From Candidatus Kaiserbacteria bacterium RIFCSPLOWO2_01_FULL_51_21 (GTDB taxonomy: Bacteria > Patescibacteriota > Minisyncoccia > Phycocordibacterales > 2-01-FULL-51-21): a DNA stretch of 35,760 nucleotides. Below are positions 28,484-33,131 of this stretch, in pieces (position 1 is the first letter of the stretch; each line of letters opens with the position of its first letter). A program made the translations under genes and the position numbers. The DNA lies in contig MFLV01000005.1 in the NCBI GenBank assembly GCA_001781435.1, positions 1-35,760 on the forward strand, read 5' to 3'. A model generated the notes under the pieces. The model worked only from the letters and a program-made list of their open reading frames with translations, made no database searches and was not told the DNA's origin.

Positions 28484-28498
28484 CGCAGCGAATAAAAT

Positions 28499-28559
28499 CC
28501 CGCTCGTCCTATCCCTCGGAGCAGATCTCCGAGGTATTAGGCGAGCGGACTTTTATTTT
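28499..28559 (+). terminator. Large nested hairpin plus T-rich tract after the fusion gene; also module 1 of a dispersed repeat
   Basis: CCGCTCG...CGAGCGG outer stem (28500-28506/28542-28548), CCTCGGAG-cagat-CTCCGAGG inner stem, then ACTTTTATTTT. Confidence 0.7.
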
Positions 28560-28577
28560 GAGAACCTCTTGGTTCTC
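28560..28577. repeat. Hairpin GAGAACC-tctt-GGTTCTC
   Basis: Perfect 7-bp stem, 4-nt loop. Confidence 0.8.
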
Positions 28578-28605
28578 AACGCTCACTCCGCTCGCTGCTC
28601 TCCTC

Positions 28606-28697
28606 CACGGGGAAACTCCCGTTTCCCCGACCCCCTTCCCTCATCCCGCATTCATCCCCGCGGAGAGCTGCGGGGTATTCTGCGGTAAGAATAAAAT
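28606..28697 (-). repeat. Dispersed structured intergenic repeat, copy A (inverted relative to copy B)
   Basis: Reverse complement contains CAGAA-[CCCCGC..GCGGGG]-ATGAATGCGGGAT...AAGGGGGTCGGGGAAAC-GGGA-GTTTCCCCGTG, matching 33035-33131. Confidence 0.85.
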
Positions 28698-33034: not shown

Positions 33035-33131
33035 TCTTTTTATATTATCCACAGAAAGCCACGGCCGTTAGGCCGTGGCTGAATGCGGGATAATGACGAA
33101 GGGGGTCGGGGAAACTGTAGTTTCCCCGTGA
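33035..33131 (+). repeat. Dispersed structured intergenic repeat, copy B
   Basis: ATTATCC-acagaa-AGCCACGGCC-gtta-GGCCGTGGCT-gaatgcg-GGATAAT, then AAGGGGGTCGGGGAAAC-TGTA-GTTTCCCCGTG; matches copy A. Confidence 0.88.

What the first reader, a model, noticed from the sequence alone, without database searches (positions are those of the whole stretch)
28606..28697. Two diverged copies of a hairpin-rich intergenic element with conserved stems and changed loops
Reverse complement of 28606-28697 and forward 33035-33131 share TGAATGCGGGAT, AAGGGGGTCGGGGAAAC and GTTTCCCCGTG exactly. The terminal hairpin keeps its stem GGGGAAAC/GTTTCCCC while the loop changes (GGGA vs TGTA). A second hairpin sits at the same place with an entirely different but still self-complementary stem (CCCCGC/GCGGGG vs AGCCACGGCC/GGCCGTGGCT). 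That is a covariation-like pattern, pointing to selection on structure (structured RNA, terminator, or transposase-recognised DNA).
Basis: seen in the sequence. Interest (0 to 1): 0.72.

Follow-up and report, generated by a model that had tools for sequence, protein, structure and literature searches.

The report
Small RNA elements copying gene ends
The two hairpin-rich stretches are copies of an apparently uncatalogued, protein-less mobile element found so far only in tiny Patescibacteria; it has a conserved folded core (probably RNA), often sits at the ends of tRNA and other essential genes, and carries arms that match the gene next to it, by a mechanism and enzyme that are unknown.

Summary
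The two window copies belong to a family with about 15 copies in this 629-kb Patescibacteria genome. A model of the first two hairpins hits 82 of 197 genomes of its order; a stricter core-only model hits 28 of 382 across the phylum. Nothing was found in viral, phage or plasmid collections, or in Rfam. The core is GAAGGGG(G)TC, hairpin 2, GTGGAGGARRGCAG, a variable hairpin 3, and hairpin 4. It shows compensatory changes and strand-specific wobble (G·T 47, A·C 10), so it is probably an RNA, minus strand at 28.6 kb and plus strand at 33.1 kb. The 'different but still self-complementary' hairpin is not classical covariation. Elsewhere the arm left of the core is an inverted copy of the neighbouring host gene's end (102 of 196 copies, control 2), and a direct copy often lies right of the core (122, control 8). 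Targets are tRNA 3' ends (96 same strand, 4 opposite), rpsI, gyrB, fusA and a murD-like gene. Near-identical cores at different tRNAs, some within one genome, carry arms matching each tRNA. Orthologous sites without the element support insertion with duplication. Reverse transcriptase, Y1, TnpB and IS110 families do not track the element. The enzyme is unknown.

The parts
28491..28691 (-). Full copy of the element ('type B'), read 5'->3' on the minus strand: hairpin 1, core, hairpin 5
   Evidence: Aligns with L001 and L007 from the same genome (88% over 137 nt and 78% over 203 nt); core model R2 87.5 bits
28646..28685 (-). Hairpin 1: outer stem CCGCA/TGCGG, inner stem CCCCGC/GCGGGG (the arm that is host-templated in many other copies)
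   Evidence: outer and inner helices change on both sides among genomic copies
28629..28637 (-). Conserved unpaired core start AAGGGGGTC
   Evidence: nearly invariant in 23 seed sequences; exact 17-mer in 9 of the 12 genomic pattern matches
28608..28629 (-). Hairpin 2: CGGGGAAAC-GGGA-GTTTCCCCG
28595..28608 (-). Conserved unpaired GTGGAGGAGAGCAG
28580..28594 (-). Hairpin 3 position (here the short CGAGCGGAGTGAGCG); sequence and length hypervariable between copies
28558..28579 (-). Hairpin 4: TTGAGAACC-AAGA-GGTTCTCAA
   Evidence: outer stem changes on both sides across copies
28491..28557 (-). Hairpin 5: AATAAAA...TTTTATT outer stem with the same AATACC(C/T)CG-type inner hairpin as hairpin 1; may also serve as terminator of the 26489-28483 gene
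   Evidence: terminator role inferred from position only
33047..33131 (+). Truncated copy ('type A'): hairpin 1 and core to hairpin 2; right half missing
   Evidence: 87-89% identity over about 82 nt to L006, L008 and L009; R2 38.7 bits, hairpin 4 missing
33057..33080 (+). Hairpin 1 inner stem AGCCACGGCC-GTTA-GGCCGTGGCT
33107..33128 (+). Hairpin 2: CGGGGAAAC-TGTA-GTTTCCCCG

Best explanation
Both window loci are copies of a short, protein-less, interspersed mobile element found so far only in Patescibacteria. SHOWN OR STRONGLY SUPPORTED: the core (about 60-110 nt) is conserved in sequence and structure on one strand: GAAGGGG(G)TC, hairpin 2, GTGGAGGARRGCAG, a variable hairpin 3, hairpin 4. Many copies are arranged host-gene-end D1, then T' (inverted copy of the inner end of D, median 16 nt, ending a few nt before the core), then the core, then D2 (direct copy of D, up to 93 nt). 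At one fusA site related genomes lack the element, and D2 runs into a region resembling their native upstream sequence. Near-identical cores at different tRNAs carry T' and D2 matching each tRNA. INFERRED: at insertion the break lies inside a conserved sequence close to a gene end (in tRNAs about GTTCGA^TTCC). The element's left end carries a 7-10 nt inverted copy of that sequence, pairs with the target and is extended by copying it, which makes T' and, after second-strand repair, the duplication D that keeps the gene intact. The core RNA would recruit an unidentified enzyme acting in trans. The window's type A and B copies would be derivatives in which D is itself a hairpin, D-core-D moving as one unit.
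For: Copy number: about 15 in this genome; R1 model in 82 of 197 genomes of the order; R2 in 28 of 382 genomes of the phylum at E<=1e-6; named records from the genome scan are Patescibacteria apart from three short contigs. Arms: inverted copy score>=11 in 102 of 196 copies versus 2 with another locus's upstream and 0 shuffled; direct repeat 122 versus 8; tRNA upstream on the same strand in 96 (18 isotypes), opposite in 4. Long duplications: gyrB end 89 of 89 nt (L190), 79 of 79 (L139), 56 of 56 (L245), 93 nt with one mismatch (L152). Re-templating: L214, L237 and L252 are from one MAG (FW305_bin.8); across all 22 pairs with core identity >=95% and different isotypes, T' beyond the seed is 36% identical, and matches its own upstream better than the partner's, 0.72 versus 0.59. 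Sites without element: fusA in G142, G139, G077 and G081 against occupied G184 and G181. In this genome's two tRNA-Ser copies the right-hand copy D2 carries CCA and the left does not. Structure. Identical 199-bp copies L006 and L008 show recent movement or recombination.
Against: No enzyme was found: RVT_1 and Y1_Tnp do not track the element, 18 strongly positive genomes have neither, TnpB is in 0 of 14 and IS110 in 2 of 14 element-rich or recent-insertion genomes. The window's own copies do not show host-templated arms; their link rests on the shared core. T' matching was not found in about half of the copies at the chosen threshold. The mean own-versus-partner T' difference is modest, because tRNA T-arms resemble each other. 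In rpsI- and fusA-type copies T1 and D2 differ by synonymous codons, which simple duplication followed by decay does not explain. No expression data. The wobble bias could partly reflect strand-biased C->T mutation, although T1:T' mismatches at the same loci show none (26:26).
Confidence: 0.5

Rival explanations
1. Mini integrative elements: D1/D2 are attL/attR of tiny cassettes inserted by tyrosine recombinases that recognise tRNA, rpsI, gyrB and fusA ends; T' is part of attP, and the core is a shared cargo or accessory site.
For: Gene-end targets and restoration of the gene end by duplication are classic integrase behaviour (tRNA fragments from integration: PMC9897764). T1 and D2 of rpsI copies look like two functional rpsI alleles.
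Against: One near-constant core with about 18 tRNA isotypes and several protein genes would need many integrases; arms differ between near-identical cores, including within one genome. No cargo or integrase gene recurs next to the copies; integrases themselves were not surveyed genome-wide. Strand-specific structure is not needed by an attP.
Confidence: 0.2
2. Bacterial SINE-like retroelement: the RNA has a 5' arm T', scaffold core and a 3' T2 that primes reverse transcription at a nick (pegRNA-like); D is the target-site duplication.
For: D2's left boundary is nearly fixed while D length varies up to 93 nt; T' and T2 are complementary; the core looks like RNA.
Against: Reverse transcriptase (PF00078) is absent from this genome and from 8 of 14 genomes chosen for recent-looking insertions, including those of L190, L139 and L245, and is not positively associated with the element.
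Confidence: 0.1
3. REP/REPIN-type or MITE DNA moved by a RAYT or other Y1 transposase acting on the hairpins.
For: Palindromic ends of types A and B; left flank YYAC and right end TCAC in the type A copies resemble IS200/IS605 cleavage sites; one Y1 gene in the genome.
Against: The Y1 gene has its own different hairpins ACTTGGAGGCTTAGCCTCCAAGT; 22 of 60 strongly positive genomes lack Y1_Tnp; Y1 elements are not known to make duplications of up to 93 nt or inverted host copies (own knowledge).
Confidence: 0.12
4. A regulatory or 3'-processing RNA of tRNA and ribosomal genes maintained for the host; the arms are kept by selection for RNA pairing with the gene end.
For: 96:4 same-strand placement after tRNAs; structured strand-specific core.
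Against: Also at the 5' side of fusA and a murD-like gene in antisense orientation, and in unrelated intergenic sites; T1:T' mismatches show no wobble preference (26 G.T, 26 A.C); fusA copies absent in congeneric genomes.
Confidence: 0.08

Closest known systems
REP/REPIN elements with RAYT (TnpA_REP) transposases
   Same: Short intergenic palindromic interspersed repeats without ORF, many copies per small genome
   Different: Conserved unpaired core motifs, strand-specific structure, arms matching the neighbouring gene end, duplications up to 93 nt; no consistent Y1 partner
Integrative elements / genomic islands at tRNA and conserved gene ends (tyrosine integrases)
   Same: Insert inside gene ends and restore the gene by a duplicated end (attL/attR-like D)
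   Different: Core of about 60-110 nt, no gene, many different targets with one core, plus an inverted target copy
SINEs and other TPRT retroelements
   Same: Non-coding RNA-like core, variable-length target duplications, presumed enzyme in trans
   Different: Reverse transcriptase absent in many carrier genomes, including some with recent-looking insertions; inverted target copy at the left end
IS200/IS605-IS607 (TnpB omega-RNA), IscB, IS110 bridge RNA
   Same: Structured RNA with a target-matching segment next to a scaffold
   Different: No TnpB or IS110 protein tracking the element; IscB not searched; no constant flanking motif seen by eye; target-matching arm changes with each target
E. 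coli rtT RNA (tyrT repeats carrying tRNA 3' end copies)
   Same: Repeat units that include a copy of a tRNA 3' end (from own knowledge, not checked)
   Different: Not tandem at one locus in general, not restricted to one tRNA, contains inverted copies; no Rfam match

Membership tests
REP/REPIN + RAYT | Palindromic repeat mobilised by a cognate Y1 (PF01797) transposase in the same genome | tested here: not met
   Y1 in 38 of 60 strong carriers versus 77 of 137 others, p=0.43; 22 strong carriers have none; own Y1 flanked by different hairpins
REP/REPIN + RAYT | 5' GTAG/GGAG tetranucleotide before the hairpin | tested here: inconclusive
   GTAG or GGAG occurs in the hairpin-2 loop, not before the hairpin; no cleavage assay
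TPRT retroelement / SINE / group II intron | Reverse transcriptase available in genomes with recent insertions | tested here: not met
   RVT_1 in 6 of 14 genomes with recent-looking insertions and none in G000; an RT lost since, or missed in incomplete assemblies, cannot be excluded
TPRT retroelement / SINE / group II intron | Target-site duplication of variable length | tested here: met
   Direct repeats D up to 93 nt, right-hand copy in native context at fusA
Tyrosine-integrase island | Insertion at conserved gene ends with duplicated gene end | tested here: met
   tRNA, rpsI, gyrB, fusA, murD-like
Tyrosine-integrase island | Integrase and cargo genes inside the element | tested here: not met
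   D1 to D2 holds only T' and core; no recurrent neighbouring ORF that looks like a partner
TnpB/omega-RNA (IS200/IS605) | TnpB (PF07282) present | tested here: not met
   0 of 14 carrier genomes, positive controls ring
IS110 bridge RNA | IS110 DEDD transposase (PF01548) present | tested here: not met
   2 of 14 carrier genomes, none in G000
Known Rfam RNA | Match above gathering score | tested here: not met
   No match in the window; in six loci only the tRNA genes exceed it
Structured RNA | Compensatory changes in helices, strand-specific wobble | tested here: met
   9 of 18 pairs with changes on both sides, 2 of 500 shuffles; 40 such cells, 0 of 500 shuffles; G.T 47 versus A.C 10 (two misregistered pairs with 39 A.C cells excluded by hand)
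Structured RNA | Transcribed in vivo | not testable with these tools
   No RNA data

The most novel reading that the evidence does not exclude
A categorically new kind of mobile element: a protein-less RNA element that at each insertion copies a stretch of its target as an inverted arm onto itself while duplicating the target gene end, so that it can settle in essential tRNA and protein genes without breaking them, driven by an unrecognised enzyme of Patescibacteria.
Probability: 0.38. Interest if true: 0.9.

Novelty: new variant of a known kind. Interest (0 to 1): 0.72.

Why it matters
Patescibacteria have very small genomes, yet this element occurs in a large share of one order and scattered through the phylum, at some of their most conserved genes. 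If the arms really are re-templated at each insertion, it is a natural system that writes target sequence next to a structured RNA and duplicates gene ends seamlessly, with no enzyme yet assigned. It would also explain part of the tRNA fragments and inverted repeats in these genomes, and it offers a ready covariance model for finding the enzyme.

Tried and rejected
Rfam: nothing beyond tRNA above gathering. RAYT/Y1 partner: the only Y1 gene found in the genome has other repeats, no strong association. Reverse transcriptase partner: no positive association, missing in 8 of 14 genomes with recent-looking insertions. TnpB and IS110 partners. Viral, phage or plasmid carriage: none found; the two viral scans used exact patterns and the phage and plasmid searches one query sequence. 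A conserved neighbouring ORF: recurrent families near the copies look like housekeeping genes or LAGLIDADG-like and GIY-YIG-like reading frames (identified from the sequence by eye, no family search) in 6-7 of 111 loci, not tested against background. A constant PAM/TAM beside T: none seen by eye, no formal test. T1:T' as a selected RNA hairpin: no wobble asymmetry. Literature searches found no description of such an element; one search failed on its input.

Full report
WHAT WAS CHECKED. The shared strings, loops and hairpins are present as described. The 17-mer AAGGGGGTCGGGGAAAC is far above chance in the window and occurs 12 times in the genome with up to two mismatches, against none for the reversed control. 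The window is one contig of a 629-kb, 92% complete genome placed, from the relatives found by the scans, in Patescibacteria; the neighbouring window genes are glycan-type enzymes.

ANATOMY. Aligned genomic copies show five hairpin positions. In the window the 28.6-kb copy is complete (28691 down to 28491, minus strand) and the 33-kb copy is cut after hairpin 2 (33047-33131, plus strand). The core runs from GAAGGGG(G)TC through hairpin 2, the unpaired GTGGAGGARRGCAG, a hypervariable hairpin 3 and hairpin 4 with an exchanging outer stem. Type A and B copies carry related hairpins on both sides of the core (H1 and H5). Two type A copies, L006 and L008, are identical over 199 bp at unrelated sites.

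STRUCTURE. In 10 genomic copies 7 of 23 pairs change on both sides (3 of 500 shuffles reach this) and 18 cells change on both sides (0 of 500). In 23 core sequences from many genomes 9 of 18 pairs change on both sides (2 of 500) and 40 cells do (0 of 500); further pair types are not raised. Over about 210 core matches the two arms mismatch as G.T 47 times and as A.C 10 times, once two alignment-register pairs holding 39 A.C cells are set aside by hand; the raw totals are 47 and 49. This points to a functional single strand, most simply RNA, read in the sense used here. The mismatches between T' and the host gene end are balanced, 26 and 26, so the arm itself does not appear to be kept as an RNA pairing. 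Related sequences and strand-biased mutation are caveats.

DISTRIBUTION. A covariance model of H1 plus H2 (R1) hits 82 of 197 genomes of the order at E<=0.01, the weaker ones uncertain. A core-only model (R2) hits 28 of 382 genomes sampled over the phylum at E<=1e-6. No match in viral contigs, phages or plasmids, with the limits stated under tried and rejected.

THE ARMS MATCH THE HOST GENE. In many copies the sequence just left of the core (T') is the inverted copy of the end of the adjacent gene, and a direct copy of the same end lies right of the core. Of 196 distinct copies, 102 have an inverted match of score at least 11 upstream (2 with another locus's upstream, 0 shuffled), and 122 have a direct repeat (8 in the control). 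Ninety-six lie 7-114 nt after a tRNA gene on the same strand, 4 on the opposite strand, with 18 isotypes. Other targets are the 3' end of rpsI (L004, L108, L112, L113, L154), the 3' end of gyrB (L190), the 5' end of fusA (L077, L121, L133) and a murD-like gene (L011); the rpsI, gyrB, fusA and murD names rest on reading the translated ends, not on a family search. In likely recent insertions the direct repeat D is long: 89 of 89 nt, 79 of 79, 56 of 56, 93 nt with one mismatch. This genome too has tRNA-linked copies, at two tRNA-Ser genes; there the right-hand copy keeps the encoded CCA and the left-hand copy lacks it.

INSERTION AND RE-TEMPLATING. At fusA, G142, G139, G077 and G081 lack the element that G184 and G181 carry. 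In G184 the right-hand copy D2 continues into sequence resembling the upstream region of empty G142, so D2 is taken as the original end and the left copy, now part of the gene, as the new one. Left and right copies differ only in the Arg codon 3 in both genomes (AGA versus CGT or CGC), and rpsI copies also differ by synonymous codons; this is unexplained. Twenty-two pairs with cores at least 95% identical sit at different tRNA isotypes; T' beyond a 9-nt seed is on average 36% identical between partners, and matches its own upstream sequence (0.72) better than the partner's (0.59), a modest mean difference because T-arms resemble each other. L214 (tRNA-Cys), L237 (Gln) and L252 (Lys) come from one MAG; L198 (His) and L223 (Leu) from another. 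The arm is therefore unlikely to be a fixed guide carried by the element; copying from the target fits better.

MECHANISM, HOW FAR. Inferred, not shown: a break inside the conserved target (in tRNAs near GTTCGA^TTCC), priming by the element's left end that carries a short inverted copy of the target, extension that captures T', and repair that duplicates D and so spares the gene. In the cases read the core's sense strand points out of the gene, as expected if only insertions that restore the gene end survive. Reverse transcriptase, Y1 transposase, TnpB and IS110 do not track the element, so the enzyme is unknown, and a tyrosine recombinase, whose genome-wide presence was not surveyed, remains the main rival.

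THE WINDOW'S COPIES. Their first hairpins do not match a neighbouring gene. They fit a D-core-D unit in which D is itself a palindrome and which moves as a whole; this is inferred from the shared core and from H1 and H5 resembling each other. The core's own helices do covary.

JUDGEMENT. The element is filed as a new variant of non-autonomous mobile DNA because no enzyme or movement has been shown; a categorically new mechanism is not excluded.

Noticed in passing
L013 (genome contig C27, Y1 ORF 1270-1953 minus): A RAYT-like Y1 gene is flanked by and contains in frame copies of the palindrome ACTTGGAGGCTTAGCCTCCAAGT, read as RGLASKL/GGLASKL inside the protein; an in-frame REP-type insertion in a transposase.
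   Followed up: partly
L157, L214, L236 (hairpin 4): The hairpin-4 tip carries an extra shared domain of about 35 nt, GGCACATCGGTAGATGATGTGCAYCTGTRGACG, between AACC and GGTT.
   Followed up: no
L077/L270 (G184) and L121/L272 (G181), fusA start: New and old copies of the gene start differ only in Arg codon 3 (AGA versus CGT/CGC), in both genomes.
   Followed up: partly
L004, L108, L112, L113, L154 (rpsI 3' end): The right-hand copy reads P-H-W-(S/C)-K-R while the gene itself reads P-Q-W-(S/A)-K-R, with synonymous differences in several, as if two rpsI alleles met (no right-hand copy was found in L004).
   Followed up: partly
L012 (genome C15:19202-19303): Hairpin 1 has become a perfect palindrome (CTCGCATTCATCC...GGATGAATGCGAG), suggesting palindrome correction by template switching.
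   Followed up: no
L033 (C22:26365-26488) and L034 (C11:45154-45303): A diverged relative in the same genome with GGAAGGGGGAGGGGA...GCGYAGGTGGAAC instead of the usual core start and hairpin 2.
   Followed up: no
L125/L164, L126, genome G238 contig C2: Tandem arrays of two or more cores; in L125/L164 they alternate with copies of the same gene end.
   Followed up: no
L226, L238, L241: Three short contigs in assemblies titled Ectothiorhodospiraceae, Omnitrophica and Polynucleobacter carry the core; probably mis-binned Patescibacteria DNA, not tested.
   Followed up: no
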